NCBI GenBank assembly: GCA_963969365.1
Contig: OZ017751.1
Location: forward strand, 2,232,001 to 2,296,000
Origin: Asterochloris sp. CNOR1
Lineage: Eukaryota; Chlorophyta; Trebouxiophyceae; Trebouxiales; Trebouxiaceae
DNA: 64,000 nucleotides
Direction: 5' to 3'
Positions 238 through 58,255 of this stretch are shown piece by piece (within the stretch, counting starts at the first letter, position 1; the number at the start of each line of letters is the position of its first letter). A model generated the notes under the pieces. That model searched no databases. It was given only the letters and a program-made list of their open reading frames with translations, and was not told the origin of the DNA. Position numbers and translations under genes: made by a program.

Positions 238-3200
238 TCACTGCTGGCTTGCAAAGGGAGATGCCCGCGCCTCTTCTGCAGCCTGGGCCACTGCCGGCTC
301 AGCAGCCAGGTCTGCAGGGGAGCTCGTTCTGCGATACTGCAGACCAGGGGCCCCTGTGGGCAAGGCGCCGCTGGGCAGAGGCTGGCCCGACGCGTGGCTG
401 AAGCTCGACTCTCGCCGTCGCCTGTTGCGCTCATCGAAGGCGGGGCCTCGCCCAGTCACTGGGGGCAGCTCATCCAGCGTGGAACGCTTTGACTCCAGAC
501 GGGCGGCTGCTATCATGCGGGTCAGCTGCGAGGGGCTTCTGCTCACCAGGGCGCAGGGCTCCCCACTTACAGAGCTGCTGCGCGACCTCAAGTCGGCAGG
601 GCGGCTGGTGGCGCCATTCTCAGGGCTGTCGGGTGCCTGCTCTGGGTCTGAGGGCAGGGCCAGGGGGCTGACCTGCATCGCACACCAGGGCAGGCTTGCT
701 GGAAGGGAGCAACATGCAGCATGCAGCTGGCTTGGAGGGCAGGATCAAGGGGCTGCTCCGCAGTGAGCTGCACAATCAGCAGTCTCTAGTTGTCCAGTTG
801 GCTGTCAGCAGTGGCAGGTGGTCTTAGCAGGCCTTTAGGCTTTGCCTGTTGCACTGCTGGCAGCTGTCACCAGGCAGAGCACTTCTTGCGCAGTGAACAC
901 TGGTACAGGACAGCAAGGTTCATTCAGCCCCGCTCATCTCATTTCACAAAAATGTTTCTGGAACAGAGCAGGACTGACCTGCCGCGCCTCTGGCAGCACT
1001 TCATTGGCGGCCTTCAGGTCTGCGTTGATCTGGCCGACAATGACCTCCCAGTCCACCTGCTGCTTGGCGTGGCGCACACGGGCCCACCGAAGATCATTGC
1101 AGGCCGAGGCTGCCACGCGCTGCAGCCCTAGGTCATCAATCATGCCCAGCGTGTAGGCCTGCACACAAGCTGATACATCTGTGAACCTCGCTACCTGACA
1201 GTGAGGCAACTGAGGACTTGGCCTTCAATGCCTCATGGGGAGAGAGAAATAAGAAGTTGAGGTTTGATGCTTATTGGCACAGCCGTCCAAGGAACGCGTT
1301 TGCAGAGCACATACCTGCTGCGGTCACTGACTAGCAGCTGCTTGCCAGCAAAGGCAGGCCTGCCTGCCCTGCCCAGGCGCTGCTGAGCAGCATCTGCTGC
1401 ACATGTGGCAAGCACTAGATGCAGAGAACACCAGGCATGTGGCTGCAGGAGCGGCCTGCAGCACAAGACAAGCTGACACGCATGCTATGTGGGGCCTCGG
1501 GGCAGCAGATGCCAACGCGCAACCTCGGAATGCTAGATCTGGCAGCGCATGCATATAGTGAAGTGTGCAACACAGGGCTGGCTGACCTGCAGAGCCACTC
1601 CAACGTAGGTCTTGTGCAGGTAGATGCTCTTGCTGCGCCAGGTGCCCAGCCAGGAGGCCTCGTCTGCACGCGTGATGCGCAGGCGGCTGACAGTGTCGCG
1701 CACAGGCACTGCCTGGTTTATGAAAGCCGCCAGCATGCGCGGCTGCCCATGGCAGGGCTTCATGCGCTTGGTGAGCTCCTCCGCAAACAGAAGGTCTCCC
1801 TGCAGCCACAGCAGGGGGCTCAGTTGGAGGCTGAGTACCCAGTCTGGACCGGCAGGGCTCTAGCCACTTAGTCAGCTCCTCGCCAAACCAGGGCGGCCCC
1901 AGCAGCCATAGCACCATTTCGGCTTGGAAATTGGAGTGGGATGTCTTCCAGCACTCAGTCAGCGCCTCTGCAAACAGGATGTCGCCTTGCAGCAGCCGTA
2001 CCAGGTGACCACAAAGCCATCCACTCTGGTGCGATTTAGACAGGGCCTGTGCGTGACACTGATGCTGGGTGGCGTGCCATTGCAAACCTGCGGGGAATCC
2101 CTGTGGCCTAGGTCAACTTTGTCAGACCCACCTGCTGCTGTCACATCGTCCCGAGAAGCAAGAGCCATGTCGCAGCAGCAAGTGGAAAGAGCACCCCTCA
2201 TTGCACCCTGATTGCAACTGTCTGTGCTAGTTACAGCTGCCTGAGCTGTTGGTGGTTTGCCTGCCGCAAACTGTCGCACCTGGCCATTGTCCCCTATAAG
2301 GATGAAGCAGCTCTCTGGGTAGAGAGCTGCATACTGGCAGAAGCGCCGCATCTTACGCTCAGCCAGGGTGATGTATAGCTGGGCCTCAAACCTGCCTGGC
2401 CGGTCAGCAGGTGCCCTGCAGGGCAAGGAGCAGCGTAACGACCTTCTGTGCTGAGAACTGCATGAGTGGCTTTTGTGCATGGCGTGCTGAGGCCAGTCTG
2501 TGTCCTCCCATTCAGGGGAGTGCAGGCTTCAGGCCCAGCCACCGACCAAGTCGGGGGTCGACGCTAGCTGGGGTCAGCTATTGATGACAGGTGGGGCATA
2601 TGCAAAGCATCAAGCACCTGGACTGCAGCATCCAGCCCCTCACAGGTCAGGCAGACACTGATAGCCTCGCAGGCAGCTCGTGCTGCTGCGGCCAGCCCAC
2701 TTGACGTACGGCTCAAGTGGCTCACAGACCAAGAATCTGGTGAGCAAATTACCACATGCAGACCGCAAGGCATGCAGGATGTGTGAGCAGCTCTACCCTG
2801 CCCTCACCTGCCCTTAAGTGGCAGACAGCCCAGGTTGCTGGTGTTCAGGCAGATTTGCAGGCCGAGCGCCTGTAAAAACAATACAGCAATGATCAAGACA
2901 GGCCAAAGTACCTGCCCATGAGGTAGCTCCAGATCGCGCTGCTGGCTGAATCCAGGTCACCCAGCAGCAGCACTGGCGAGCAGTACAGTTCCTTGCGCTT
3001 GAGGAGGGGGTTGAATAAGGTAGAAAAACTCTCATACTCTGTGATACCATGTCGCGCCTGGGGTCGCGCACTCAGGAAGGCCAGGTTCACCCCTTCCTGC
3101 AGATGCAGCAATATAGCAAATCAAGAGATAGGGTTTTCTAGGAAAGGGTGTTTCCTGTGCGCACCCAGAAAGGGTTCCTTGACAGGTGTGCAAGCCCCTG

Positions 3201-6200
3201 CCTGCAGACTGCCCAAGGCACAGCGACCTCGCACTGCCAGCAACATGAGGCAAATATGCTCAAGCACCAGCTCAGCAATTGTACAGGCGGGTCTGTGCTG
3301 CTGCCAAGGGCAGCCCCATTTAGCTACAGGCAGAAGGTGCCGCCCACGTGCAGGCTGGCGGACGTGCAGGCTCCATGCAGGCGGCAGCAAGGTGGCTGAC
3401 ACAAGGCCAGCGGCTGCAGGCGTCCTGTGCTGACCTGGTGAGCTCTCTCGGGGTCACTCTCTCGATTAGCAGCCGGCCCAAGCTGGGTCTCACCGCCCTC
3501 TGCAGGCTGCAGGTTGGCGCGAGGGACGCCCCTCCGCCTGCGGGGGCGCCGGCTCACACGCGGCCAGTCACATATCAGCATCAGCATGCTGATGGGCGCA
3601 TACTTGCGCATCTGGGCCCACTCAATGCTACCCAGCCAGCTGGCGGCTGAGTTGGGCCCTGTGCCCTCCCTGGGCCACTGCAGCTGCTGCCAGACGAGGC
3701 CTGGCTGTCTCCACACTTGGCGGGGCTGCATCCAGACCGTCCACACAGTGATCTGCAGCGCTTTGAGCAAATTGGCCAGCAGGGCCCCCAGCAGCAGCAC
3801 CAGCGCTGCCAGGCCAGCAGCTGCGCGCTGGAGGGTGTGCAGCACCTTGCGGGGCAGCCTGATGGTCACCCAGGCCAGGCAGTCTGTCAGGCCCTGCTGC
3901 GTGCTGCGCCCGCCGGCCTTGACCACAGCTACCACTGGGCTGGAGGCCCAAAATTCCTGGAAGGCTGCGGTCAGCTCCATGAAGGCGCCTGCCTGGCCTG
4001 CACCATGCAGCTAAAAGGGTGTTGCAGGAGGTTGCACCAGCTTGCATACTTCAGGCTTTCACTGTTGTCTCAAAGCATCGAACAGCATGGAGGCATCAAG
4101 TGCGCTGCAAACACTGCACAGGCTCACCCTACAGTTTGGCTCAATTGCCTGGGACTTGCTTATGGGACAGTGCCTCCTGAACCGCCCCTCTGGATTCACA
4201 TGCCAGGGAAGTGCAGCATGGAGCACACAGCACCCCAGGCCCACTTGCATCTTCTGCCTGCAGGACGCTCACCCAATCGGGGAAGCCCGCTTGTTGGGTT
4301 GCAGTGCAGCATGATACAGTGCACACAGCCCACCTGCATCGACTGTCTGCAGGACGCTCTCCCTCTCGGGAGCATCCGAAAAGCCGAGCTCCTCGCCAGC
4401 CACCGTCCCAAACAGGCCAGTGCCCGTGATCACTCCCCCCTCCTCCAGTTCTCGCCGCTCGTGCTCAGAGCTGGGGGCCGGCGGGCTCTCAGGTGCCAGC
4501 TCAGCCTGCTCCGCTTGAAGCCCGTCCTGAAAGTGCAGGGCCGCCAGCGCGCTACGCCGCTGCCCCATGCTGCGCCTGCACAGACGCAAGCGCAGGGATT
4601 CTCATGCTTGCGCATGTTGGCGCAGAGAATCTCAGGTAGCACAGACAAGTGCACAGCCGTCAAGCTGCTGCATCACTGCCCCATGCTGCAGCTGGAGCCT
4701 TGTCACTGCCCTGAGTGTTTATGCTGAACGACAACAGAGGCACAAGCTAGCAGACACTCTACAAGGCGTCAGGAGTGGAACAGACAAGTGCACAGCCGTC
4801 AAGCTGCTGCATCCCTGCCCCATGCTGCAGCTGGAGCCTTGTCACTGCCCTGAGTGTTTATGCTGAACGACAACAGAGGCACAAGCTAGCAGACACTCTA
4901 CAAGGCGTCAGGAGTGGAGCAGGCAGCCCCACCTGCGGGGGTACTGCCTCGCAAAGCCCATGTCCAGTGGATCAGGCGACTTCGCGTGGCGGGCATCCAC
5001 AAACTCCTCTGCCTCAGCCCCTGCCAGCCCGCCGACTGCAGCAGCCAACCAGAGGAAGGTCACTTCTTGGCATTCCCCCTGCCAGTCAGCCAGTACCTGT
5101 CCTGCTGATAGGGAAGCAACCCTCTGCGTCAGCCCCAGCCAGCTTGCTGTATGCATCAGCCAGCCAGAGAACAAGCACAAGTTGGCTTCATCCCTAGTCA
5201 GCCAGCATGTTGCAGCAGGCCAACAAGTGCATCCCACATTGCTGGTGGGGCAGCAACGCCCTTCTGCCTCGGCCCCTGCCAGCCAACCAGCTGTGGCACT
5301 CCACCAGGCACAAGGTCACACAGAGGGACCCAGCACTCTCCAGCCCCTGCCAGCCTAGTGCAGACTGTCACAGGGGGCAGGTCGTGCTGCAAGGATAACA
5401 CATCCAGAGCTTACTGTCATGACTCTGCGTAAGGCTGTCTGGGATGCGCAGAGAGCTAGGTGCAGTTGCAGAGCTCTCTCTCTGCACATCCTTGTTAAGG
5501 AACAGCACTGTCAAGAAGTGCATAGTGCCTGGCTAGAGAGCCATGCGGCTCACCCTGGTGCTTAATAGATGCCAGGTGCCTGAAGCCTGCTGACAGGCCA
5601 GCCCAGAAGCCGTGGGGCAGCCGCTCCCGCGCGGTCGGCGAGGACGCCCCATTGAAGTCTTCTGGGTCCACAGACTGCTGGCGCATCCGCCTCTCATGCT
5701 CCAGCTGCTTGCAGCGCTGCACAGCACGGGCAGGCGGTTTCAGTGCAAGCTTGGGGCTAGCCATGGCCAGGATGCAGCAGAACTGCTTGTAATCTATGCA
5801 ACAGCGCGACTTGCAGCACATCTTGCAGCACAGCTTGCAGTGCAGGGCTTGCAGCCTCCTGGACGCAAGAGACAGGTAGACAGGTTGTGGTACGGCTCTG
5901 ACCTTAGCAGCAGTCAGACATATGTTGACTGAGAGAGTGCCCGCAAGAGGTTTGTGACTTTCTCAGTCAATGCTGCGCTGCAGCTCACCTTGAGCCTGAG
6001 GCCAAAACCAATGTCCAGCTCGCTGTAAAGTGCAAGAGCTCCAGGGTACATGCACCGCTTGGGCAGGCGGCGGTCGCTGCCTGCAGGCCGGGAGGCATGC
6101 ATGCACTCAGCACCCAGCAGCTGCATACTCGCGGTCCAAGCAGGCCAAGCAAAAGTCAAGTCCTGAGAACAGCCTGGCTGCTAATGCCGTCTGGCTGCAG

Positions 6201-8581
6201 GTGTGACGCACCTGCGGGCCAGGAGCCTCCACTGCACATCAGTGTGTCATCAATATCTGACACCACCTGCAGCAGAGGTCTTCAGAACAGGTGCGATAGC
6301 ATTAGATAACTGCGCAAGTGCAGAAGTGGGATGAGCGACCTTTGGCAGCAGCTTGCCTTCAAAATCAGGCCAGGCGGCCCTGTAGGGTTCTGGTCGTGAA
6401 ACTCCTGCAGTGCTCTCTTGCCCTCAAGGCTCACGTGCTGCAGCACCTGCCGCTGGTACTCGCCCTGCACAATTAGCGTGCAACACTCTCAGCAGCAGCA
6501 GCAGAGAAGCTCATGGAGACATACATGCCTCCACCCCTGGACTCTTAGGTGCCTAGTGCCACCTGCTGCATGGCTGAAGCAGCAGCATTGCTGATCACTC
6601 CCTCTCCTCATGCAGAGGAGCGAGGCTTTTGTGCTTGGATGACACCCCAAAGAAGACCAGGAAAACCGCTGAAATGGACGGCAATGTTCTTGCCCTCCCT
6701 GCTGCCGCAGGAGCAGACAGAACAAGAGCCGAGCGCGTAGGCTGAAACCGCAAATTATACCCCATGTACCCATTCTTCTCTGCATCTTGATGCTCTGACA
6801 GCAGGCTGGTGCAGCAGCCCCACGGCTTGCCTGCAGGTCATTGTAGATCAGCTTGAAGACAGTGTGGTGGTCTCCGCCATCGTCCAGCAGGTTTTTGAGG
6901 CGAGTCAGGTCGCTGCTGCGGGTGTAGACCATCAGGTTCCGTGCCCACTGCTGACGCGCAAAGCGATAGCGCATCCCAATCTTCTGCAACGCATCCAGCA
7001 GGGCGGCCCTGCAGCAGAGAAAGTATTACTGCGTGGTTGGTGGGCAACCTGTCCTGTGCTGTGCTGTTGCGTCATACGTGGCTTTGACAGCGGACAGCAA
7101 ACATCCTGAAGCGTATCCAGCACGCTGCCCTGCAGCAGAGCACAAACCCTTCGAGCACAAGGGGGAGTGCTTGGCCAAGCGCTGCATGTCAGCTGCTGCT
7201 GTGCAGCTCGCCTGGCGCCACAGCAGAGCTGGTTGACCAGAGGGAACGTCTCAGGAGTGTGACTGAGCACGTGAGGGGCCCAAGGCATGAGGGTCCAGCC
7301 CTGCATCACTGGGTTTCGGCTGGGGTGAAGCATGAGTATTGCATGGCCAGTCTAACTGTAGATGCCTCCTTTTGCGGTCTGGCCAGCAGGCAGTGTCTGC
7401 ATTGCTGTGCCAAGGAGCGCAGCACACTTCCTGCTGCCTTGGCACACACATCCAGTAGTGATCGGCTGCGCCCTGTTGTGGCAGATGGACCTGGTCAGCA
7501 CTGTGACCCTGGGCTCTGCAGAGCTCTGCGAGTGTGCTTAGCTTGTGGATTGGCACGCCTTGTTGATACTGAGTCAGCACGCATTCGTATCAGCGATGAA
7601 CTCTGACCTGGCCAGGACTGTAAGTTCAGGTAGGCGCTGCTCAGGCTCAGTGAGCATGTCCAGGGTGTTGGGGCCACAGACCTCAACAAAGGCAGCGCAG
7701 TTTATGTTGAGCAGGATGAAGTTGACCTCCTCAGAAGTTGCACTGGACATGATCTGCACAGCAGAGACAGGTGCACTGTGTCAAAGGCGGTTCAAGCTGG
7801 CAGGGCACAGGGCGTGCAGACCTTGGCAAGACAGGCATGGCAACCATCAGTGGCGCTCCGCTCCATGATGAGACAAGAGGAGTGGCGGCTGATGCGCTGC
7901 AGGCTTGACTGGCTCACACATATGCACAGCATGCCAGCCTATGCATGTAATTTGCGCTGGGTCGCTCCTGAACCACACGCACCACATTTTGTACCTTTTG
8001 ACTCCTATGATGCAGTCACTGCTGCCTGCTCACCTCATGCAGAATCTGCTGACTGGGGCTGGGCCGCTCCAAGACTGTGCGCCACAGCGTGAGCATCCCC
8101 ACGGTCATGTTGTGCCACGTGCTGATGTTGTCCACCAGCTCCAGCACATAGTCAGCTTTGCCCTTGGCTTCGGGACTCCCTGCAGCATGGACGCTATGCA
8201 GCTCCAGGCAGTGCCTTTCCTGACCAAGACCACGTTAGGTGGGCCGCCATAGTGCTGATGTGCAGCTTGAGTCACGTGAAGTACTGGCATGGTGTATCTC
8301 AAAAAGACCTGCTGCCCAAGCGTGAGCATGTATGCCCCAAACAAGCACCCAACAGTGCCTCAGCAAGCATGCTCCCGCAGCTTACATTCAGCTGATGCCT
8401 TGCGTGGAGTCAGAAGCATGGTAGAGCCTGCTGCAGCTGGACGCTCTGAAGCAGTTTGGTGCAGTCAGATGAATGCAGGCCGCGGCCTGGTACCTTCAGC
8501 CTTGGTGGCAGCTTCGACTGGGAAAGGCGTAAGGAACAAGCGCTTGTGGGCCAGCACTTCCAGCCAAGACAGGATGGACAC
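238..8581 (-). CDS. Phosphatidate phosphatase APP1-type (DUF2183) protein with a long internal insertion; N-terminal exon not resolved
   Basis: Sixteen exons with consistent phases can be joined: 8581-8494, 8179-8034, 7753-7608, 7008-6831, 6464-6357, 6266-6212, 6080-5989, 5716-5554, 5035-4933, 4575-4334, 3988-3435, 3096-2912, 2391-2280, 1799-1587, 1158-979 and 672-238. They encode about 999 residues. The HAD-type nucleophile motif DIDDT lies near residue 226 (exon at 6266). FLSARP follows near 632 and GDNGQ near 724. These motifs, and YPGALALYSELD after the first, match plant DUF2183 proteins related to yeast APP1, which dephosphorylate phosphatidate to diacylglycerol. About 354 residues (four exons, 5716-3435) separate DIDDT from FLSARP, where plant relatives have only a short loop; the insertion contains a hydrophobic stretch near 3850-3780. 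The Ser/Arg-rich tail looks disordered. Introns starting at 6830 and 6356 use GC donors. The first exon upstream of 8581 was not found. The family call is firm; activity is inferred. Confidence 0.85.
1780..2010 (-). repeat. Ghost copies of an exon start in an APP1-like intron
   Basis: The exon starting at 1799 begins with the codons for GDLLFAEEL just after a TGCAG acceptor. Two diverged copies of the acceptor plus exon start lie upstream in the intron, near 1901 and 1985. The outer copy reads GDILFAEAL. Spacings are about 85 and 100 bp. The copies are clearly similar but not identical. Confidence 0.7.
4215..4375 (-). repeat. Ghost copy of an exon end in an APP1-like intron
   Basis: The exon end and donor at about 4334 recur near 4245, 89 bp further into the intron. 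On the plus strand both copies share a GCCCAC(C/T)TGCATC core followed by CTGCAGGACGCTC. The flanks match too (GCAGCATG at 4215 and 4307). Confidence 0.7.
4641..4919 (-). repeat. 139-bp tandem duplication in an intron
   Basis: Two adjacent copies, 4641-4779 and 4780-4918, differ by about one base in the body (CATCACTGCC versus CATCCCTGCC) plus an edge base. They lie in the APP1-like intron between the exons at 4933 and 4575. High identity suggests a young duplication, or slippage retained in the assembly. Confidence 0.9.
5010..5350 (-). repeat. Ghost copies of an exon start in an APP1-like intron
   Basis: The exon start at 5035 encodes GGLAGAEAEE. On the plus strand its GCCTCAGCCCCTGCCAGCC core recurs with changes near 5126, 5266 and 5338 in the upstream intron. 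Spacings are about 115, 140 and 72 bp. Confidence 0.65.
6990..7135 (-). repeat. Ghost copy of an exon start in an APP1-like intron
   Basis: The exon at 7008 begins with codons for AALLDALQ after a CTGCAG acceptor. A second CTGCAG acceptor 121 bp upstream (ghost exon start near 7129) is followed by codons that read GSVLDTLQ in another frame, with clear nucleotide similarity over about 30 bases. Confidence 0.7.
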
Positions 8582-9374: not shown

Positions 9375-12300
9375 ATGCTGACAGGCTCTGGCCCCCTTGC
9401 CCTGAGCCACAGAGCCATTCCTTCCTTCACTCTGCCAGCCTGGCAGTCTGCCTGCAGCGTCAGCCGTGATACTACCAACTCCCTTGCGTCCTCCAGCTCA
9501 CAGATTCACTGGCTCAGCAGGCCCATCACCACGCAAAGGGTGTCAGCAGTGCTTGCAACTCGCCCTCAGCAGAAGGCAGCGCCTGGAAACAGGCCACCTC
9601 GCAGTGGCACTCCCAGCAGAGGCAACAGTGGCCGTTCCCAGGAAGACTTGGTGGCGGCTGTGGAGACTTACAGAAGTCGACTGCAGGATGGGGATGCACA
9701 GGCAGCAGCAGGCTTGGACGAGCTGCTTGACAGTAAGTCTGTCCCCTGCACACACCTTTATCCAGCTGCCTGTTCAGCACCGGGCCACTGGTGCCATAAA
9801 AGCTGCTGCAGCATCAGTCTCTAGTCTAGTTGCCTGCACACAGCATGTTGCCTAGATCACTCTCTGCCCTTGTGGCTTTGCACTTGTCAATGAAAGATGG
9901 CCTGCAGCCCCCACTTGCGCTAGCCACCTCTGTTCGCCTGGAGCTGTGTTCACATATGCCCAGCTGCACCCACTTGTGCTGTTGGGTTGGCCTCCGTGGC
10001 TGCAGCCTATCTGCTCTCGTAGCTGTGTTGCCCACACCTGCCTCGGTCACTCATTCCATCAAGCTGCTGTCACACAGCTTGTACACCCTGTCCTGCAGTG
10101 CTGTGCACAGCCGGTATGTTCAGGGCAGCCTGGACGGTGTACGAGCTGGATCCCAAGAAGCGAAGCCGGCTGCGATATAACACTTTCCAGAAGATGTGCC
10201 TGGCCGCTATCCAGGTGGGCATTCCTGCCGCCGTGGCTGCACGCAGAACTTGTGTCAGCGCCGATGGACAGCTGCTCCACAAGCCTGTGGCAGCTTGCAA
10301 GCCCTGTGCAAGAAGAGCTGAATACTATTACAGCAGCAAGCTCAGCATGCCCTTGCTCCTGTGAGGGCGTGCCTCTTTGTCCAAGCGAGCCGGAGCCCAC
10401 CAGGGCTCAACCTTGGCACAGGCATGCAGCCTGGCTGGACCATACCAAGCCACAGAGCAGCCTGATGAGTCCAGCTGGCCAGCGACCAGCTGCAGCCAGT
10501 GACATTCAAAAGTGGCTTACTGCAGCAGAGAAAGGCTGCCAATGCTTGGTGCAGGCGGGTGAGCCCTCCACTGCCCTCAGAATATTTCGCGACCTGGAGG
10601 GCAGCCAGCTGAGTCCCAACCACAAGACGGTCTCCAGCATCATCAGCGCGCTGTCGCGGCTGCGGCGCAAAGGGCAGCCCAGCGCAGAGATCGCGTACCA
10701 GCTGTGGACTGAGATGCACCAAGGGGGCGGGGAACTGGATGATGTGGCCTACCGGGCAGGTGGACACAGCATCAGTCACTTGTTAAAAGCCTGCCCTATG
10801 CATGCGTAGCACGCGCACAGGCAGCGAAATGGACACTTCAGCCTGGCGGGCAGGTCTGCTGTCAGCTAACTGCAGAGTGCACCTGATACCAGGGACATAC
10901 CAGGGCCAACGCGCTGCCCACCAGGCAGGCAGCATCTGGCGCATGCATGTAATGCCCGAGGTGGGCAACTGGCTGACTGGCCTGAGCAGCTGGGCACTGC
11001 GCTGCACTCTGGTGAGGTGCACTGCACTGCCCCTGGGGAGATGGGCACTGCGCTGCACTGCACTGCCCCTGGGGAGGTGCAGGAGTCACATCCTGCTTGG
11101 CTGACGTTAAAGAGCAGCAGGATCGACAGCAGGCTGCCGTCCCAGGGCGGCCAGCTGTTTGCCAGCCTGCTGCTCAGACATTGCAGATGAGGGAGCCTGC
11201 ACATGTGCAGTGGCAGAGCGTCGTTGTGCCAGTCCGGACGGGGCTGTTCCTTACCCTCTCCCCCGTGGTCCAGTGATTGCCGCCTGTGCCAGGCGACACA
11301 CCTGCAGCATGTGGGACACGTCGAGCGCTCATGCTGCCATGAGTTGCAGCACCAGCTGGAGACCTGCTGCTGCTGCGTAACAAAGCAAGCTGGCCTTCTC
11401 CCGCCCACTTGGTTGGCCTCCTGACTGTTGCAGCCCCGACCTGATTCCTGCCGAGGCAGGACTCAACACCTGTGTGAATGTGTCCCCTGCTTCTGCAGGC
11501 CTGAATGCCTGTGTGAACCTGGGGCGCCTGGAGGAGGCGGCTGCTCTGCTGGGCGAGATGCAGCGCGCGGGGTGCCCCCCAGACGTGCGCACCCACAACA
11601 TCCTGCTCAAGGCAGCTTCCCGTGAGGGGGCCTGGGCGCAGGTCAGCCGGGTGCACCTTGTTGCCGCATCGTGGCTCCACAGATGCGTTGATCACCATTC
11701 ACAGGCACCCCAGCCAGTCCCTTTGCTGTCTTCAGCCCAAGCTCTCTGGAGGTAATTTAGCTGTGCGATACGCTCCAAGAAGGAACTGCAGGCTGCGCCA
11801 AGCCTGCTTCATGCTTGCATGGGAGCAGAGGGTGTCCATAGGAGCAGAGGGTACAGGCTTGCATGCCAGGCTGCTTTGACCAGTTGTGGAGGGTGCTGTG
11901 TCAAAGCCTCCTGACTGTTTGTGCAGGTAGATGCGCTGATGGAAGAGATGCGCCAACTGGGGCTGTCTGCCTCAGGGGCCACGCATGGGACTCTTGTGGA
12001 CGGGTTTGTGCGTGCAGGGCAGCTGTCCCGAGCCCAGCAGGCTCTGCAGGATGCAGAGGATGCAGGTGAGGGCTTTGCCTGATAGAGGCATCTCCAAGAC
12101 TGGTAGAGGCCGGCTGCAACGTGGACTGACACTCTTTGGCTCCAGTTCTGACCGTCAGTGACTGACCTGCCCTTGGCAGGAAGTCTGCATGACTGCAACA
12201 GGCGCTGCAGGGCAGGTGAAGGGCTTGTCTGGCGGGAGCACTGTGCGCGCAGGTTGCAATGAGGGTCACATGCTTGCTTCAGCTATGGGCACCAGTGTCT

Positions 12301-15300
12301 TGTGCCTGCCCAAGATTTGCATTGCCTCAAGTGGCGCTGCAGAACGCACAGGTTGCAGGTAGTGCAATCCACGGTGTGGTATAACATTGCACTGGAGACG
12401 AGGCTGCTCTTGCCGTCAAGGGGTGGTAGCTTAGGTAACGAAGTACAGGATGCACTGCCTGCCACTGGACTAGTAGCGCATGCACCTTGAGGAGGGAGGC
12501 CTTATTCCGTTAGCCTTGCCGTGCAGACTGGTTGACCTAATGCTGTTACTGAGCTCCAGGCGTGGCAGGCTTAGCCGCAGTGTGCAGCATATCTCGATGC
12601 ACTGCATGCCACAGCATGCCGCCTGCTGTGCGCACCCTGTCCACAGTGGCTTGAGGCGCACTGTCACCCTGCAGGAGCGCCTCTGGATGTGTGGAGCTAC
12701 AGCGCTCTCATCAAGGGGTATGTCCAGGGGGGGGACGTTGCCCGTGCCCGCAAAGTGCTGCAGCAGATGCAGGCAGCAGGCGTCCCCGGCAACGAGGTGA
12801 GCTGGGACCATCTGGCGGTAGCAGTTGCAAACAGATTGAGCACCCTGGGCTACTTTGGCAAGACCCAGGCTGTCCCTTGGCTGGCCCGTCATCCAAGCAG
12901 CACTTGCCATGCTTGGCAATTGCCCCCTAGCAGGCGGCTGCTGGAAACGGGATCGCCCGCTGCCTTGGGCAGCCAAGCCATGCACTGCTGTGTGCTGTGT
13001 GCTACAGACCTGTGCCAGCTGACCTGCAAGGGAGTCCTCTACGACAATGCACAGCCTGCACCATGTGTGCTCTTGCCTTGCGACAACGGTCTTTGCAGTG
13101 CAGGTCACTTACTCGACCTTGCTGGACGGCTGTGTCAAGAGCGGGCAGACGCGGGCAGCCCGTGCGGTGCTGTCGCAGATGCAGAGGCTGGGCCTGCAGC
13201 CCAATTCGGTGACATACAACTCCTTGCTGCGAGGGCTGGCACAGGATGAGCAAATAGACCTGCAGGTGTGTACTGGGGCTGTACAGATGCCTGTGCCGTG
13301 CCAGCATGTGGGCGCATGATAGAGGGGACTTTAGCAGCTTGAAGCAGTGCACCCATGGCTTTGTGCGCCTGCGCATTGCCGGGAGCACTTGCAGTGCTCT
13401 GAGGCAGCCACTACAGTCTGCCTGGAGTTGAGGGGCCCGGCAGCAGTTTTCGCAAACTGCCATTTGATGGCAGCTGCATACAGTGCACACGCCTAGGCGG
13501 GACTGGGCCCTGCCCGTCTGCTGTGCGAGCTCAGGGTGGCCACTGCTGCGTGTTTCGCCCGCTGGGGTGCGATCACCTGCTCGGCAGGTTTCGAAGGTGC
13601 CAGCATGTGCCTGCTGCAGGAGTCCTTTGATCTGCTGGGGGTGATGGAGGGGGCTGGGGTATCCCCCTCTGTGGACACGTACAACACGCTCATGGTGGCC
13701 TGCAAGCAGCGGCACCAGCTGCAGTCTGTTCCCCGCATCTTCAGGCGCCTCATAATGTCAGGTGGGTTGTCTGTCAGTGTTAAATGCACTTGCCGACCGA
13801 GGCGACTTGGTGCAGCTGCGTGCTCAGCCCGGCCTCAGTGCTGGCTACATGCAGCAGCACAGCAGTGGCCACTGGTACTTGGTGCCCTGTACCACCTTGA
13901 CATGCTGTGATTGAGTAGTTGTGTTTGTTGATGCCTGCTGTGGGTGTGCACTGACGCCACCTGCTTTGAGATGACACCCTGTCATCCCCGATCCTGGCTT
14001 ATGCAGGCATCACCCCCGACAGTGTGTCCTACACAGTGCTGATCAGCAGCCTGTGCCTCCTGGGGCGCATTGATGACGCCCTCCAAGCCTTCAGCAGTTT
14101 GCAGGTGTGCTGCAATTGCATCATGCGTCAGAATGTCCCTACCAAGGCTGACAACCTGAAAGCACTGCCCCCTATCTCCCTGACGCTGCTCGTACCAGAG
14201 GCCTTGGCAGCAACTGCAGCAGTTATCCTGGTAGCTCCCTGCCACAATGTTGTTCACCTTCCATTTGGCCTTGAGCTCTGCTGTCTGCTGTACCAGAGGT
14301 GGCATTGTGCCTTTGCAGGATGCCCCTGGCGCCAAGTCAGACCTCTATGCCCACAATGTGTTGGTCAACGGCCTCAGCAAGGCCGGCAGGATGGCTGAAG
14401 CTGAGTCCTACCTGGAACTGGCCACTCAGATTGCCCAACAGGAAGGGGTGGCCCTCCCCATCGAGGGCTTTGGCGCAGTCGTCAAGGCAAGGGCAGTCGT
14501 CCAGGCTTTCTCCCAGTGTTCAGGAGGCCAGCCAGACCTGTGCATGGCATGCCTGCCCCACCTACTGTGAAGCAGCCTGTCACTGCATTAAGCTGCTGCC
14601 TGCCATTGGCTTGCCCTGGCAAGCTAGCTGCGTAGCGCCAAAATGCCGCTGGTGGTCTGGCCGCCTTGCACCACTTCCACTGGTTGGCTGTGCTGCAGGG
14701 CTATGCGCAGAGGCAGGAGGTGCAACCAGCTCTCAGAGTGGTGAAGAAGTTCTGGGAGCTTGGTGGCATGCCAGATCAGGCCATGTTTGACTGCATTGCT
14801 GAGCTGTGCGTGCGCACGGGGGAGTTCAAGCCAGCACTGCAGGTGAGCGTGGCCAACTGCTTGGCTTCTGGTTGCCTGCTGTTAGCCTGACCCTCTTGGG
14901 CCTGGTTTTGGGCAAATTCACGTGTTACAGTCTGTGACACTGCTGGGCACCAGCAGGCTGCCTTACCAGTCATTGGATGGTGATAGGCATGCTGCTGCAA
15001 CAACAAGTTTTGGAGGTGCACCTCTGGCTGACCGTCAGCAAGGTGACAAGCCCTGGTCTTGACAGTGTGTGTCATGCTGCTGCAGGTTGTAAGAGCAATG
15101 GAAAAGATGGGCAAGCCTGCATCTAAGCGGCGATTGAAAGAATTGCTGTCAGAGTTTACTAGGTGGGGTTTGGGTTTTTCAAGGCATCTACTCCAGCTGC
15201 TCGGCACATGTTCTGATTGCATGTGTCTAGGGTGCTCGAATGTGCTTAGAAATGCTAAGCTGCTCAGCAGGCTGCTCCTGGGTGCAGGCAGGAGTATGAC

Positions 15301-15399
15301 ATGAAGCGCAAGTCCAAACAGGGCAGCAAAGTGCGCAATGAAAGCCTTGAGCGATTCAAATTTTGGCTTGGCCTTCCCAACACTTACTACAATAGTTAA
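9375..15399 (+). CDS. Pentatricopeptide repeat (P-type PPR) protein, probably organellar
   Basis: The start at 9375 opens a Ser/Arg-rich, acid-poor leader typical of an organelle transit peptide. Early exons are 9375-9732, 10111-10214 and 10555-10759, then 11499-11641, about 11927-12065 and about 12676-12797. Further exons lie near 13104-13264, 13620-13760, 14006-14103, 14320-14487, 14699-14842, 15086-15161 and 15293-15399. From exon 3 on, roughly one 35-residue PPR motif falls in each exon, for example VTYSTLLDGCVKSGQ, DTYNTLMVACKQRHQ and VSYTVLISSLCLLGR. No DYW or E domain is visible. The basic C-terminus ends KFWLGLPNTYYNS. PPR proteins bind organelle transcripts and guide processing, stability or translation; the target cannot be read from sequence. 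Exons 4 to the end lie inside the 9.7-kb tandem unit, so this first copy is the only complete one. It converges with DVR, 235 bp between stops. Confidence 0.85.
10991..11080 (+). repeat. Short imperfect tandem repeat in PPR intron 3
   Basis: TGGGCACTGCGCTGCACT occurs at 10991 and 11042, each followed after a variable gap by CACTGCCCCTGGGGA. It lies just upstream of the left edge of the 9.7-kb duplication. Confidence 0.8.
11440..11530 (+). repeat. Duplicated acceptor and exon start of PPR exon 4
   Basis: Codons for AGLNACVNL at the real exon start (11499) are preceded 39 bp upstream by codons for AGLNTCVNV, also placed right after an AG in the same phase (ghost start 11460). Both acceptors fit exon 3 in frame. 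The same arrangement recurs at about 21113-21203 in the second tandem unit. Confidence 0.75.
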
Positions 15400-15634
15400 T
15401 TTGGGCTGACAAAGCTTACTCCCTTCAAGCTTTTGCTCTTGTTGTATTACAGCTGACTATGCAAACAATTACTTCACTTGCATCGACATGCTGCATGTTA
15501 CTTTGCTCTGTCCAGCAGGCTCAAGAGGGTGAGCTGTCCCTAATGGGACAATTGAAATGAAATGCATTGAAAATTTGGCAGCCTTGAGGCCACAAGCTCA
15601 CAAACGTCAGCAGAGAGACATATGAGGGCAGGGT

Positions 15635-18100: not shown

Positions 18101-18336
18101 ATTGTAGCGAGCACACCTGAGCTACATGTTGTAGCCGAGATGACAGCCTGATGTAGGCTGTGGCTACACGGACCTGGGCATGCCGCTGCACACCACAGTG
18201 CACAGCACAGCGATCCAGATGAGCAGCTGAGCAGCCTGCCATCCGCATCTCAGGATGAGGTGTCCCCCTTTTTTGCTGACCTGATTTGGGCAGCATTACC
18301 CCTTCAGTAGACCTTGTTTCTGAAAATCGCCTCTCC
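18101..18336. promoter_or_regulatory. Shared upstream region of DVR and DUF1995 genes
   Basis: Only 236 bp separate the divergent start codons of two plastid-protein genes. A bidirectional promoter is inferred from spacing; I recognise no specific element. The identical copy lies at 27774-28009. Confidence 0.4.
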
Positions 18337-25072: not shown

Positions 25073-25307
25073 TTTGGGCTGACAAAGCTTACTCCCTTCA
25101 AGCTTTTGCTCTTGTTGTATTACAGCTGACTATGCAAACAATTACTTCACTTGCATCGACATGCTGCATGTTACTTTGCTCTGTCCAGCAGGCTCAAGAG
25201 GGTGAGCTGTCCCTAATGGGACAATTGAAATGAAATGCATTGAAAATTTGGCAGCCTTGAGGCCACAAGCTCACAAACGTCAGCAGAGAGACATATGAGG
25301 GCAGGGT

Positions 25308-33100: not shown

Positions 33101-35975
33101 TGCCAATGCTGCAGTGGGGCAGTGACAGCCACTGGTGCCGGCCAGGCCACTGCTTTGGTCCTAAGTCCGCATAGTGGGGCTGGTGCAGCCTGTTGGTAGC
33201 CCTCGACTTTGTGATCGACACACGGCGGTGCTGTGTGGCCAGATGGCAGTGAAAGCGGCAGTTAGGCTGACTGTGCCAATGAGCCACAACCAGGCGGCCA
33301 AGCGGGCCAGCGGCACTGAGCAACTTGAAGCCTTGGCTTCCATTTGCTGGGCCTGGTGCCTCACTGGCAGATACATGGTGCTGGACAGTCAGCAGCCTCA
33401 TGCAGACCTGTCAGCAAAAGCTACTCACCAGAAAACAGTGATCTGCAATTGCAGTGCATTCTCTCAGCGAGGGGTGCAGCTCCTGCACAGCAAATTGATG
33501 CAATGTCAGCGCCTGTCAAGAACAATATGATTTCAGTTTACAGGGCAGTCACATCAGTGAAATTCTGACTTGGCAGCTTTGAGAGGGCTAGGTGCTGCTC
33601 ACCTCCTCATGCTTGGAAGCCAGCAGGAGACAGCACACAGCCAGCAGCTGCAAAGTATTCCGCTTTGTTCCCTGCAGACAGGGACAGGGTGAGATGCGTG
33701 TAATGTCAGATCTGCCAGCAACAGCAAGAAGGCTAACGCCAATCCAACAGTGCCGGGGCATTCAAGCCCCTATTATGTGGGACAGGGCTTGTTTGTGGTG
33801 GTCAACATGTGGGCAGCTGTGCAAGTCCTTGGATTGCATGCTCAGCTGCACAATGCTGCTCCTGCAGAGCACACCGCTGCTAGGCTTGCGCCTTGTGGCC
33901 ACACCACAAGGACTTTTTCAGTCAGACAGCCTGTTCGCCCCTTTCTCAAGCCGCGCCGGGTCCTTTCCAGCCTCGGCACACATGCTCTTCTCCTACACAT
34001 GCCATCTGTTCTACCCCAGCCCCTGCATAGGCCGCACCCCGGCAGCAGCCCTCCGCGACTGGCCCGCCCGCAGACTGTTCCTGGTGCCTCACCCGCGTCT
34101 GGCTCAGGTACCGGTCAAACAGGTGGGTTGCCAGGAACAGCGTCTCCTGGTGCATCTCAAACTCAAGCGCCACCTCCACCAGCCAGCTGATGGCAATGGC
34201 CCGCATGCTGGGCTGCAGGTATAGGTCAGGCTCCACCTCCCGTGAGTGTCTCTGCAGGTAGTCGGGGTCAGGCAGCAGCGCCACCTCTGTTGTGTATAGG
34301 TTCCTGCGTGGCCACAGCCAGGGAACCTGTGCGCTCAATGGTGCAGCATCTGTGGTACAACAGGGGTTGGGCAGCAAGACCATCTCGTTGTGGTGCAGTA
34401 TCTGTGGCACAGTCGGGGTTGGGCAGCAAGACCATCTCGTGTAGTAAAGGTTCCTGCAGTGGCATTATGTAGGGCTCGATGAATTGACCATGTGCAATCT
34501 CCAGAAGTGATGCTGCCGCTGGGGCAGCTCAGGTGCAAAGTGATGCATTCACTGTGGCAGCCAGGGTCAAGTCCATAAGATGAATTGTGCCTGATACAGG
34601 TCTCTGCAGGGGCAGCACAGTAGGCTGAGGGTACTGGACGTTCTGCAGGGTTGAACAGGGCTGCCTGTGGCTTGTACACGGTTCTGCAGGACTCGATCCT
34701 GTCAAGCTCAGTCCTGTGTGACTCAGCACAATGAAGCCCAAGCATGTGTTCACCGACACGCACAGTGCCTTGCTGCATGGCATCCCCATCACTCGGCGTC
34801 TAGCACCACGAAGATGGGTGCGCAATTGCTGGCTCCATTCCTTGGGCTTTCTGTGGGCAAGTGTTACTGGCGCTCCATTGAGCTGCCTCAGTGTTCCAGT
34901 CAAGTGCAGAAGGCGCGTCCTTGCTGAGCATACTGCCACCATAGATGAGCTCATTTGCCTCCCTTGGCACAGGCCCTGCATGTGACTCTCAGCGCCAGCA
35001 CTGCAGCTCATGCATGCCACCTTTTCCCTGATGCCATTGCAGCCACCCTGCTTGACAGCCACCGGCGTCTTTGCACCTGACCATCTCATGCAGGTCCAGC
35101 TCTGAGGCGAGGGCCTGGCGCTGCTGGGCAGGGTCGTCCACTGCAGGCCTTGGGCTGTCATGCCGCAGGTGAGCCAGGGGCGCCTGCTGCAGCAGCGGTG
35201 CGGGGCTAGCCCTGTCGTGGAACAGATCTGACTCCCCGCAGCAAAGATCTGCAGGCAGGGCACACAATGTGGGCTGCTCAGCTTGTTCAGCAGGCACAGG
35301 GTCAGAAGCTGCGCCTCATCCATGATTCATAGGTGAGATCCTGAACTTGGCGCCAGGGAGGAGTTGAGCATGCCTGAAATGCGCATGCTGCACCTGCATA
35401 GGTGCTGGCTGCAGACTGCTGGGAATCGCTGATGGGCAGGCTGATAGGCAGGGCAGGGATGTCTGCTCCAGCTCCGAAACGGGACCGAACTCGTGCCACT
35501 GGCGATCTGCCCCAGCTCAGGGCACTCCTCTCCTCCGAGATCAGTCCGCTGTCTGCCTCCTGCACCGAATGTTGGGGGCGGTCAAAATTGTGGCGCTCAA
35601 TCAAGCCAAGTAAATCTGCACCCACCCTTGCTCTCTTGGTGGGAGTGTCATCCTCCAAAGCAGTGTCCAGGCCTCGCTGCAGTCAGGGGAGCATTTCGTT
35701 TCCCAAACAGTCCATGCACTCTCAGGGAAGCAGCTGACTGTGGCGCATGGGCCATGAAAGGGCATGCAGCACATCACCTTGGAGCCTGATGAGTTGGCTT
35801 TCAGCATGCCTGCATGGTGCGTCACTGGCAGCATGGGCACGTCCACTGCAGTCTGGGTGCTGCTGGCAGAGTCTGTCCTGTGTAGCAGGCGCAGAGGGCT
35901 GGAGATGGGGGCTTGGTGCTGCTGTGCTGCCCACCTCTGATCACTCTGCTTGACTGCAGGCAGGCAATGGGCCAT
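30138..35975 (-). CDS. Mitotic-type (A-like) cyclin
   Basis: Cyclins activate cyclin-dependent kinases. The cyclin box is clear: MRAIAISWLVEVALEFEMHQ then FLATHLFDRYLS (exon about 34303-34100), LQLLAVCCLLLASKHEE (about 33675-33604), and LVLQTLDFRLNSPTAHTFL (about 32943-32794). The second cyclin fold has LIEYRMLYFPPSVIAAAAVLL (about 32081-31912). The terminal exon (about 31012-30138) has LLELHRRMDEAD and EKYSQAQW, like the AxREKY tail of A-type cyclins, then a long low-complexity extension to LKKQRCS. N-terminal exons near 35975-35782, 35672-35390 and 35270-35077 are variable and contain TPTKRARVG; no destruction box was confirmed, and the start at 35975 is a guess. One exon between 32790 and 32090 may be missing. 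Intron 5' to the exon at 34303 carries exon-start repeats. Confidence 0.8.
31625..31656. repeat. Perfect 32-bp palindrome
   Basis: The 16-base arm ACATCAGACCATGAAT is followed immediately by its exact reverse complement, with no loop. It lies in a cyclin intron. The flanking bases do not extend the symmetry. Confidence 0.95.
31815..31925 (-). repeat. Ghost copy of an exon end in a cyclin intron
   Basis: The exon end at 31912 encodes AQLRDLSGYTPQLLG before a GTAAGC donor. A diverged copy about 90 bp further into the intron encodes GQLQHLSDYMHQQLG and ends at a GTGGGT donor-like site near 31822. Confidence 0.7.
34262..34465 (-). repeat. Ghost copies of an exon start in a cyclin intron
   Basis: The start of the cyclin-box exon (34303, codons for EVALLPDPDY) is echoed twice upstream as EMVLLPNP-like sequence. 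On the plus strand the two ghosts share GGGTTGGGCAGCAAGACC, beginning near 34363 and 34416, about 52 bp apart. Confidence 0.75.
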
Positions 35976-46456: not shown

Positions 46457-49400
46457 ATGGGCCAATGCAGCAGTAAGCCCCCTGCGACCAGCGGTGACGC
46501 TGAAGTCCCTAGGGCGACTGTAACAGCCGTCGTAACTCAGCGAGAGCCTGGTGTTTCTGAGAAGGTCCAGGAGGCCAGCCTCGAGGAGTCAGAGGGAGGA
46601 GACGCTGCAGACCTGCCTGTGTCCAACAGCTCATACGACGAGGCTGACATCCACGCCACTCAGGCCAGCCAGAAAAAGGCAGCAGTGCTGAGCAGCAGCT
46701 CAGATGGAGATGCCAATGGGAAGGCATCGGTGGACCCCAGCCTACCATCCAACGCCAGTGGCAGCAATGCAGAAGTGCAGGATGTGCTAAAGGAGTACAC
46801 GCTGCTGGCAGAGATGCTGCAGTACAGCCCTTATGCTGTCACTCTCATTGATGTGGAGCAGTCCCACCAGCCATTTGTTTTTGCCAATCAGGTCAGAGCT
46901 CAGCATGTGATCTGCAAATCAACGGCTGGTTGCTTGCAGAGGTGGCAGGAGATTGCTTTGGTTGCCACACCTGAGACCAGACGCTTTGAGGCCCGTATGT
47001 CCTACATTGTGACTTGCAGGTCTTCCTACAGCAGATGGGCTTCAAAGAGAGTGATGTGGTGGGGCAAAGCTGGTGAGTCCAACAGGAGCCAGGCAAAGGA
47101 CCTTCAGCTCAGCTTGCTGAAGACACTGCTGTTGCACGCAGTGTTGCTGGGTGCGCCTTGCTGATCCTCAGCTCACCACTCCTGTCTGTGGTAGCTGCTT
47201 CTGCTGTGTCTGGCATCTAGTGAGCTGAGACCTGCCTGTTTTCCAACCCTTGCAGGCAGATGTATTTGCAGACTCCCTTCCAGCATACTGCCCACAGCGA
47301 TGTGCCTGAGCGCATTCGCGAGGCTTTTGAGACAGGGTGCGAGTTTCGCGAGGTGAGGCAGCTGATGTGCTCAAAGCTCCTAGCACAGGCTGTGAGCTGC
47401 TGAGCTCTGCCCTCCAGCACATGACACACACTTTATGTGCAGGTGGCTGCATGCTACACCAAGGGAGGGGACATCGTCACTTTCCAGCTGCTGTTCCTGC
47501 CAGTGAGTCATCACTGGCCTGGATGCTTGATGCAACAGCCTGTCCTAGTTCGCTGCTTGCACCTGTCACAGCCAGTGACCCCTTGCATAGGCTGAAAATC
47601 AGATCTGATGGCTGCCAGTCTGCCCCTAAGCTGCAAAGCCTGCAAACCTCAAGCAGATGCCTTTTGGCTGAGAAAGCAGGCCCCGCAAGGGTCACTTGTT
47701 ACTGTGGTGAGCAGGTGTCCAAGGATGTGGGCAGTGGAGTGACCCACTATGTGTGTGTGCATATTGCCAGCGAGACCACCACCAAGGAGATGCGGGCCAA
47801 GGACCCCTCCTCCCCTGTAGCACTGCCCAAGCTGCCTGATGGGATGGCAGAAGTGGCCACCGCACGGTAGGCATGGTCTCCTGTCACTGCGCTGTGCTCC
47901 CCTGCATGCTGTCTGTGTGCGCTGCGCAAGCGGCCCCAGGATCTGCGTTGCTGTCACTGGGATTGGTCTTGTGCGGGGCTGTGTGTGTGAGGTGCCCAAG
48001 CTACTGGACAGGACGGCAGAGCTGGCCAGTAGTGGCTGAGGTGGGCATGCTTGCCCCGTTTGGGCATGGGGACATGGCAGGGGCTGCCAGTGTCGCAGGT
48101 GCTGTGACAAGAGCTGCAGCAGCTGCCGCCCTGCCGCTGCACAAGTTGCCAGATAGGACAGGTGAGGTGGCCATTGCTAAGTGCGCCCGCAGGGCGGTTA
48201 TTGTCACAAGAACATTTTAAGATCAATCTCCTCAGGGACAAGAGCTGCGACGGCTGCACTGCATGCATTGCACCCACAGAGCTGCCCTTGGAGACTCTCA
48301 AGCAGCTCAAAATCGCTTTCTATCTTGTGTGTGTGGCGGCTGAGCCTTCATCACCAGATTGCAAGCTGCCGTGCAGGTATGTGAGCATTACCATGAAGAA
48401 TGCGACCCCAGAGCAGCTGCTGGGCGGCAGCATTGAGTCGCTGGGTATCAGAGTGGGCTCCTTCCATGGCAGCCCGATAGCACCCAAAGTAAGCAGCTTG
48501 CTGAGTGCCTGGCCCCATGCGTTTGCTGCCGCTGCATGAGAGCTCCTCCAGGGTCACGTGCTCATGCTGCCTTGTCTTGGACAAGTGCTGCAAATTGCGC
48601 TTGGCTGTGTGCTTCAATGTTTCGTCCATGCAATTGCTCAGCTTGTGCATGTGGTGCATATTGTAGGTCAAGCAGGCAGCTGGCAGGTCAGGGCTGGGGA
48701 AGGCGAGCGCTGCGGCCGAGGAGCCTACGAAGCCCGCACCCAAGGCGCAGCCAGCACAGAAGGTGACCAGCACCACCCACTGTCTCAGGGCTTGGGCCTT
48801 CATAGTATGCGCTTCCAGGAGGTCTGCTGAGAGAGTGGCAGCACGTGTTGCCTTAGGGAAAGGGCTGTACAAGTCTGCTGTCTGTCGGCCTTCCCAGTGG
48901 CCCCTATGGAGCTGCTCTCTGTATCCAGCATGAAGCTTTGTTGTGGCCTGAACTCTAAGTGCAGGCACAATTTTGGCTGTGGGAGCCTGGCATAGGCCGT
49001 GCGCCTATCTGCAATGCGGTGTGCTAAGCTGCAAGCTGCCTGCACACTGCTGGCTGGCCAAGTCTGGCAGCTGCAATGGCAAGTCTATGTACACAGCTCA
49101 AGCCTGAGTCTGACCTGGCATGCTGGCCTGCGCAGGTCAAGTCTGGCAAGGGCAAGGCCAAGTCGCGATTTGCGCCGGCTGGGGAAGATGCAGACGAGGA
49201 CTATGACAGTGACCTGCCCATCTCACGTGAGTGCCTCGCTGCCTACGCCTTCTTGTTGAGCCTCAGCTCCTTTTGAGATGCTGGGCACGGTAGTTAATTT
49301 GCTGCTGCATGCTTCAAGCAGTGTTCTGGCTGCTTCAGGCAGAAGCTGTGCTGGGTGGGCCTGTTTGCCCTGAATATGCTGCCTTGCGGGGTTGTATTTG

Positions 49401-57800: not shown

Positions 57801-58255
57801 GCTGCAGCATGAGCTGACTCCCCAACCTACTGAGGGTGCAGGCAGCCATTGTTGATGGCAGCTGCACAGTGATGTGAGGTTCAGCTGCAGCTGAATGCCC
57901 ACTGGCAACAGCAACGTCTAGGCCAGCTGCCCATACAGCATGTATATACTGCTGAGACACCTGCTGTACTTGCAGGCTGCAGACAGCCATCGTAGACGGC
58001 AGCTGCCACGATGAGTGCGAGGACCAGCTGCAACACGTGCTGACCACCCACCTGCGCACGCGCTACATGACCCATGAAGTGGACATGGGAGAGGTTGAGA
58101 TTGCTGTTGGTAAGCACAATAGCACAGGGGAGGACCATAGGATAGCCATGTACCTGCACCACAAGATGACTCGCCTCATGAACCAGTATGACTCCATGAG
58201 GCAGGGCAGAACGTGGTTTAATGAACTGAGCAGGAACCAGACAGGCACCTTTTGA
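54823..58255 (+). CDS. Fringe-like (DUF604/GT31-type) glycosyltransferase, secretory pathway
   Basis: The first exon (54823-54929) encodes a signal peptide or membrane anchor, MGLSKRQAITAAAWLVALLL followed by a polar AARGAF. Later exons: GVPTFITIDQPVTPELIAS, GMDMYNETYGYSENSGVGL, LTPFIANHSMGLDTFKWLL, then FGDDDTIFFIENTLNMLD, whose DDD is the metal- and nucleotide-sugar-binding motif (codons split by the intron at about 56260-56433). A Cys- and His-rich region near 56700-56935 is followed by GFWYFPHGGAGMIFS, and a C-terminal exon from 57976 begins LQTAIVDGSCHDECEDQL. The motif order matches fringe/DUF604 enzymes, which transfer a hexose in the Golgi. Donor and acceptor sugars cannot be told. 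The stop is at 58253-58255. Some middle exons between 55330 and 55680 are uncertain. Confidence 0.78.
57710..58010 (+). repeat. Ghost copies of the last exon start in the glycosyltransferase gene
   Basis: The last exon starts at 57976 with GCTGCAGACAGCCATCGTAG. Diverged acceptor-plus-exon-start copies begin near 57842 (GGCAGCCATTGTTGATGGC) and 57715 (GCCACAGACAGCATTTGTTG), spaced about 127 and 134 bp. Confidence 0.75.

What the first reader, a model, noticed from the sequence alone, without database searches (positions are those of the whole stretch)
1587..58010. Recurrent ghost copies of splice boundaries inside introns across many genes
At least nine introns in this window (near 1900, 4250, 5126-5338, 7129, 11460, 31822, 34363-34440, 47994-48139 and 57715-57842) contain one to three diverged copies of the adjoining exon edge together with its acceptor or donor. 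Copies lie 40-170 bp apart and always next to the real boundary. Both acceptor and donor sides are affected, in the APP1-like, PPR, cyclin, LOV-like and glycosyltransferase genes. This looks like a continuing process of local tandem duplication over splice sites, which would lengthen introns and offer alternative splice sites. It resembles the tandem-duplication model of intron gain, but seems too frequent and too regular in spacing to be incidental. Several spacings are near nucleosome length, as seen for introner elements in other algae, though no common sequence links these units.
Basis: partly seen in the sequence, partly recalled or inferred. Interest (0 to 1): 0.82.

Follow-up and report, generated by a model that had tools for sequence, protein, structure and literature searches.

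The report
Fossil copies of exon edges in introns
In the sampled part of this alga-like genome about one intron in fifteen carries a decayed copy of its own exon edge and splice signal, most likely left by short tandem duplications that lengthened existing introns long ago rather than by a process still running.

Summary
Eight of the nine sites hold copies of their own exon edge at p=0.0002 against 5,000 draws of other-gene introns; the ninth (11460) is weak. In a 304-kb sample with 620 introns from a self-trained gene finder, 73 of 1,051 boundary probes beat all 200 controls (about 5 expected). 41 introns in 19 of 61 genes carry exon-edge ghosts. Copies are direct (122 pairs against 5 inverted), local, found at acceptors and donors, without frame bias, and decay as neutral DNA.

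Duplications inside introns are common too, and random tandem duplication plus loss of exon-internal ones roughly predicts the boundary share. No exon-edge ghost of period 60-200 bp reaches 85% identity (0 of 42; 31% expected at constant rate), so this looks mostly fossil. Spacing is not nucleosome-like. Register test for intron gain and family test for introners fail.

Left open: acceptor ghosts share only the exon head plus 6-7 nt of splice signal, with no homology further upstream. They may be older than modelled, or copied by a boundary-anchored event.

The parts
1851..1993 (-). Two acceptor-side ghosts (1937-1993, 74% identity; 1851-1913, 70%) of exon edge 1750-1813 in intron 1800-2279
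   Evidence: p=0.0002
4210..4281 (-). Donor-side ghost (79%) of boundary 4303-4370, period 93, homology runs 31 nt into the intron
4636..4925 (-). 139-bp tandem duplication (97%) inside intron 4576-4932; it re-duplicates an older acceptor ghost (4647-4694 and 4786-4833, 73%) of exon edge 4531-4578
5121..5319 (-). Acceptor-side ghosts 5121-5205 (75%, 58 nt of intron homology) and 5263-5319 (77%) of boundary 5006-5093
7086..7140 (-). Acceptor-side ghost (78%) of boundary 6965-7019; exon-only p=0.059
31820..31865 (-). Donor-side ghost (72%) of cyclin-gene boundary 31910-31955
   Evidence: Cyclin_C in exon 31913-32125
31110..31145 (-). Acceptor-side ghost (75%) of boundary 30985-31020 in the same predicted 896-bp intron; gene model uncertain here
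   Evidence: models differ
34411..34463 (-). Acceptor-side ghost (81%) of boundary 34260-34312, overlapping a 52-bp tandem duplication 34339-34440 (90%); ghost keeps CACTGCAG
   Evidence: Cyclin_N in exon 33982-34302
47993..48173 (+). Two donor-side ghosts (47993-48028, 78%; 48137-48173, 76%) of exon end 47823-47859; GT not kept in the first
49053..49085 (+). Acceptor-side ghost (79%) of boundary 49132-49164
57833..57889 (+).
   Evidence: the intron finds only itself in the genome search
727..762 (-). Acceptor-side ghost (75%) of boundary 642-677
12333..12360 (+). Donor-side ghost (82%, 28 bp) of boundary 12040-12067, period 293
11456..11482 (+). Cited short ghost at the PPR-gene acceptor (placed by eye in the sequence); weak (p=0.0054, exon-only 0.29)
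   Evidence: PPR_2 in exon 11501-11641

Best explanation
Short segments (about 60-200 bp) of gene bodies were duplicated in tandem at roughly random positions. Units wholly inside exons were mostly removed by selection. Units inside an intron, or spanning one splice boundary, survived because using the outer splice site leaves the protein unchanged and only lengthens the intron. The inner copy then decays as neutral DNA. Because the outer exon copy is conserved while intron copies change on both sides, old duplications stay recognisable mainly where they overlap an exon edge, which makes splice boundaries look special. Most events are old (about 0.15-0.4 neutral substitutions per site in the one simulated model that fits); few are recent. 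Shown: homology, direct orientation, locality, neutral decay, lack of young boundary copies in this sample. Inferred: tandem duplication as the origin of every ghost, use of outer sites, and a past pulse or long decline.
For: Homology without splice signals: 41 of 1,068 exon edges against 3.1 expected, starting at the boundary (median offset 2 bp; 28 in control). Direct only: 122 direct pairs against 5 inverted with separated arms. Local: 111 pairs at 25-500 bp against 20 at 500-2,000 bp in the same 254 kb. Young pairs mostly abut as tandem units: 7 of 9 pairs with identity >=0.90 cover about 0.85 or more of their period, though only one of the nine has a period of 60-200 bp. Exon-internal pairs depleted (4 against 15.0, C6). 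Neutral decay: 52 exon-ghost pairs, codon-position divergence 0.256/0.192/0.293, pos3/pos12 ratio 1.31 (1.11-1.51); period mod 3 = 14/15/12. Simulated tandem duplications with free ages fit acceptably at 0.15 indels per substitution (goodness-of-fit p=0.065), births at 0.15-0.5, nearly all by 0.4, and about 2 younger than 0.15. Ghost-bearing introns are longer (median 407 against 204 bp), though longer introns also give more room for a ghost. Three diverged paralogues of exon 57977-58255 have a TGCAG|G at the homologous start; two show no ghost in 400 bp upstream, which suggests that the intron is older than its ghost.
Against: The single-clock model fails at 0.08 indels per substitution (deviance 50 against 18) and at 0.3, while paralogous introns give 0.055 gap events per substitution. 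Acceptor ghosts show no intron-side homology beyond 6-7 nt (1 of 17 tails at p<=0.05; donors 5 of 11), where acceptor simulations at age 0.3 predict 41-76%. Ghosts cluster in fewer genes than length-weighted chance (19 against 26.1, 95% range 22-30), which uniform placement does not predict. Intergenic duplications are not shown to be as common (5 against 9.0, sd 4.0). One paralogue (L030) has a 28-nt match of its own above all 300 controls.
Confidence: 0.6

Rival explanations
1. Boundary-anchored templated copying: during repair or replication a polymerase switches template at the common TGCAG/CTGCAG motif, copies the exon head (30-70 nt) next to a like motif in the neighbouring intron, and switches back. 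The ghost is then an insertion of exon edge plus splice signal, not a tandem unit.
For: Acceptor ghosts (17) match the real site at positions 1-3 (0.75) and 4-6 (0.49) and hardly beyond (7-10 0.31, 11-20 0.32, 21-40 0.24; control about 0.25-0.28). Exon-edge ghosts with identity 0.80-0.85 rarely extend 10 nt into the intron (1 of 11 observed, 88% expected). CTGCAG is frequent (815 in 254 kb against 612 expected).
Against: Donor ghosts do show intron-side homology (5 of 11, Fisher 1.7e-5), eight acceptor pairs run 27-100 nt into the intron, and the youngest pairs are mostly abutting tandem units. Older age plus more indels can mimic the pattern.
Confidence: 0.15
2. Ghosts are retained alternative splice sites or alternative exon ends under selection.
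For: Terminal dinucleotide kept in 8 of 14 acceptor and 7 of 10 donor ghosts chosen without using the signal.
Against: That is about what neutral decay at 80% identity gives; no codon-position constraint, no frame bias, single-base gaps common. The higher retention (23 of 31, 12 of 12) is biased, since alignments had to cross the boundary.
Confidence: 0.08
3. Intron gain by tandem duplication of a proto-splice site: ghosts mark how the introns were born.
For: 6 of 612 introns have a donor-acceptor local match >=70 (0.7 expected) and 2 have >=80 (0.15 expected); one of the six is exactly in register.
Against: No register similarity overall (14.57 against 14.62); three paralogues of exon 57977-58255 have TGCAG|G at the homologous start, two without a ghost.
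Confidence: 0.04
4. Artefact of composition, splice-signal similarity or wrong gene models.
For: Gene models are unsupported by RNA; CTG/CAG-rich genome.
Against: Controls use other introns or pieces of the same genome; exon-only and annotation-free tests stay far above chance. Inverted control near chance.
Confidence: 0.03

Closest known systems
Intron gain by tandem genomic duplication (PMC3443670, passages; PMC4974935, search listing and start of abstract only)
   Same: Short tandem duplication of gene sequence; duplicated AG|G and G|GT signals; one copy ends up spliced out.
   Different: Here the duplicated segment overlaps an existing boundary and would lengthen an existing intron; no donor-acceptor register was found overall.
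Novel intron positions by sliding or tandem duplication in Drosophila (PMC2891723, passages)
   Same: Regional duplication with intronisation of one copy.
   Different: That work concerns changed intron positions; here copies lie inside introns and no change of position was shown.
Introners (PMC9860276, passages)
   Same: Reported in algae; linked to nucleosome linker DNA by those authors; enlarge intron content.
   Different: No dispersed family in the sample: similar introns belong almost only to duplicated genes; no 147-170 bp mode in periods.
Intronic minisatellites and tandem repeats (recalled)
   Same: Head-to-tail direct copies; some introns hold several copies.
   Different: Mostly two diverged copies, detectable through a conserved exon copy.

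Membership tests
Tandem duplication (general) | Copies in direct orientation and close together | tested here: met
   122 direct against 5 inverted; 111 pairs at 25-500 bp against 20 at 500-2,000 bp
Tandem duplication (general) | Copies abut and homology fills the whole period | tested here: inconclusive
   Met in 7 of 9 pairs with identity >=0.90, mostly of short period; intron side visible in 5 of 11 donor but 1 of 17 acceptor ghosts
Intron gain by tandem duplication | Donor and acceptor surroundings similar in register, period equal to intron length | tested here: not met
   Mean identity 14.57 own against 14.62 other of 50; 6 of 612 introns have a local match, one at register offset 0
Intron gain by tandem duplication | Intron absent in relatives lacking the duplication | tested here: inconclusive
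   One gene only: three paralogues have TGCAG|G at the homologous exon start, two without a ghost, one with a 28-nt match above 300 controls; their introns were not modelled and no outgroup genome is held
Introner elements | Family of similar introns in many unrelated genes | tested here: not met
   18 intron-intron hits at E<=1e-5 among 620 introns; 16 between what look like duplicated genes, 2 others; one intron and one exon-plus-intron stretch found only themselves in 56.4 Mb (that search skips very common words)
Introner elements | Target site duplications or terminal inverted repeats | not tested
   No family to test
Alternative splice sites | Ghost sites used in transcripts | not testable with these tools
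   No RNA data

The most novel reading that the evidence does not exclude
Acceptor ghosts are products of a boundary-anchored copying process that duplicates exon head plus the 6-7 nt splice signal, without flanking intron, into the neighbouring intron, switching templates at the CTGCAG splice motif; it ran in a past pulse and made introns longer.
Probability: 0.13. Interest if true: 0.75.

Novelty: new variant of a known kind. Interest (0 to 1): 0.5.

Why it matters
How introns lengthen without mobile elements is rarely visible, because intron duplications decay fast. Here the conserved exon copy acts as a reference, so old events at splice boundaries can be counted and ranked by age. If general, exon-edge ghosts would give a clock for intron growth and a natural set of duplicated splice sites for asking which copy the spliceosome keeps. 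The lack of young boundary copies points to a past pulse or changed selection, testable with one related genome.

Tried and rejected
Rejected: splice-signal or composition similarity (exon-only and other-gene controls); inverted or hairpin origin (an apparent inverted excess, 79 against 2 introns at score 90, went away when the two arms were kept apart; I put it down to palindromes counted twice); copying from spliced mRNA (ghost flank against the neighbouring exon: 1 of 17 acceptor and 1 of 11 donor tails at p<=0.05, Fisher 0.41 and 0.029); coding constraint on ghosts; nucleosome spacing; introners; intron gain as the general origin.

Led nowhere or was replaced: first gene-finder run gave thousands of tiny exons, replaced; first alignment scoring too lenient for the wide scan, replaced (the probe test kept it, with its own controls); script failures; tRNA and Rfam scans of the window empty; Pfam on 8 flanking exons hit 3. 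Counts of intron-side tails at p<=0.05 differ by call: 4 of 32, 9 of 31, 1 of 17 acceptor plus 5 of 11 donor. In one search the control introns were reversed for donors as well as acceptors, which is wrong for donors, so its 9 of 31 is not relied on; its simulations model acceptors only and are not affected. The age analysis uses 67 of 122 pairs (42 exon-edge, 25 intron-only, period 60-200 bp); pairs of other periods, with exon in both copies, or touching intergenic sequence were left out. Pairs with exon in both copies reach 0.86-0.87 identity at most. The tally (43 of 52 pairs) is biased and not used as evidence.

Literature: the listings (titles and abstract starts; 10, 2, 20 of 97, 20 of 97, 12 of 14, 0 and 12 of 25 papers shown) held no report that I could recognise of boundary ghosts in an algal genome; subscription journals are mostly not held. 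Zhuo et al. 2007 (tandem-array introns) and Gao and Lynch 2009 are recalled, not read.

Full report
Setting. The window is C6:2232001-2296000 of a 56.38-Mb, 21-contig genome. I fetched the adjoining 200 kb of C6 and 50 kb of C1 and trained a gene finder on the sample. It converged on 621 introns (620 used later; median 216 bp), donor CAG|GTGAGY and acceptor CTGCAG|G. Of 8 exons next to cited introns, 3 hit Pfam at E<=1 (PPR, Cyclin_C, Cyclin_N) and 5 had no hit.

Is it there? Yes. Each boundary probe (up to 40 exon + 15 intron bases) was aligned to its own intron and to 200 length-matched introns of other genes: 73 of 1,051 beat all controls, about 5 expected. Leaving out the splice signal, 41 of 1,068 exon edges score >=75 against 3.1 expected. 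For the nine cited sites, eight reach p=0.0002 and 11460 only 0.0054.

Is the boundary special? An annotation-free scan for direct repeats 25-500 bp apart (score >=90 in 0.8% of unrelated 1.5-kb piece pairs against 34% of pieces with themselves) gave 111 pairs in 254 kb of C6 and 11 in 50 kb of C1. On C6: boundary-intron 33 (16.6 by circular shift), intron-intron 40 (29.4), exon-intron 20 (17.4), exon-exon 4 (15.0), intergenic 5 (9.0). On C1: boundary-intron 3 (1.7), intron-intron 6 (2.8). So exon-internal copies are missing and the rest is spread. Simulated tandem duplications placed evenly over introns and flanks give an exon-edge: intron-only ratio of 1.35 among detected events under even ages; seen 42:25 for periods 60-200 bp. 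No boundary-seeking process is needed for the numbers.

What are the copies? 52 exon-ghost pairs in 41 of 620 introns and 19 of 61 genes. Homology starts at the boundary. The exon-only test finds 20 acceptor and 21 donor ghosts; among pairs whose alignment crosses the boundary, acceptors prevail (31 against 12). Divergence by codon position is 179/699, 132/688 and 199/679, pos3/pos12 1.31: the ghost decays neutrally while the exon copy is held. Periods are 14/15/12 modulo 3. Inverted copies are few (5), repeats at 500-2,000 bp too (20). Terminal AG or GT survives in 15 of 24 signal-blind ghosts, about what neutral decay would give.

Age. Even birth in time predicts 31% of detected exon-edge ghosts at identity >=0.85; none of 42 is. 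Intron-only pairs: 3 of 25, 33% expected. Constant birth is rejected in each model (2dLL 55-99), less strongly for intron-only pairs alone (11). Loss of young repeats cannot produce a hump, since density must fall with age; an older pulse, a declining rate, or changed selection can. The sample has no N and resolves a 97% 139-bp repeat, so collapse in assembly is unlikely, though the sequencing method is not known. That 139-bp unit (4636-4925) copies an older ghost, so duplication inside introns has happened recently at least once.

What does not fit. Given exon identity near 0.80 (median of 34 anchored ghosts), tandem duplication predicts detectable homology on the intron side. Donor ghosts show it (5 of 11 tails at p<=0.05, Fisher 1.7e-5), acceptor ghosts do not (1 of 17, Fisher 0.25), their match ending 6-7 nt inside the intron. 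A model with free ages fits at 0.15 indels per substitution (p=0.065) but not at 0.08 or 0.3, and paralogous introns suggest 0.055 (7 short introns of one gene pair, perhaps length-constrained). Either acceptor ghosts are older than their exon identity suggests, or some were copied by an event anchored at the splice motif. Ghosts also cluster in fewer genes than expected (19 against 26.1), and those genes have higher GC3 (0.713 against 0.671, p=0.001; 19 and 32 genes with four or more introns), which may reflect stronger exon constraint and hence longer visibility.

Known kinds. Tandem duplication is a proposed route of intron gain (PMC3443670, PMC2891723; passages), with a duplicated AGGT serving both ends. 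Here register similarity is absent overall. Paralogues of exon 57977-58255 at 49, 38 and 54% protein identity have TGCAG|G at the homologous start; two show no ghost in 400 bp upstream and one has a 28-nt match (score 80, maximum of 300 controls 65). So growth of existing introns fits better than birth of new ones, on one gene's evidence. Introners (PMC9860276, passages) need a dispersed family, which was not found.

Limits. 304 kb of 56.4 Mb (0.5%), one genome, no relatives, no RNA, home-made gene models; the intron at 31016-31911 changed between model runs.

Noticed in passing
window 11237-30583: Exact (100%) 9,674-bp tandem duplication that begins inside a PPR gene; a very recent segmental duplication or an assembly artefact.
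   Followed up: partly
window 31625-31656: 32-bp perfect palindrome.
   Followed up: no
C6 sample 116740-124842 and 164088-165789 (add 2232000 for contig coordinates): Near-identical (98-100%) gene segments, including what looks like an inverted pair at 121-125 kb with a 54-bp 96% tandem repeat between them.
   Followed up: no
C6 sample 77921-80190 and 131063-133084: Paralogous gene pair whose short introns are still 77-91% identical, usable to calibrate intron change.
   Followed up: partly
C6 and C1 sample: Genes with ghosts have higher GC3 and coding score than genes without.
   Followed up: no
C6 sample 129275-130157: Large diverged repeat cluster outside predicted genes.
   Followed up: no
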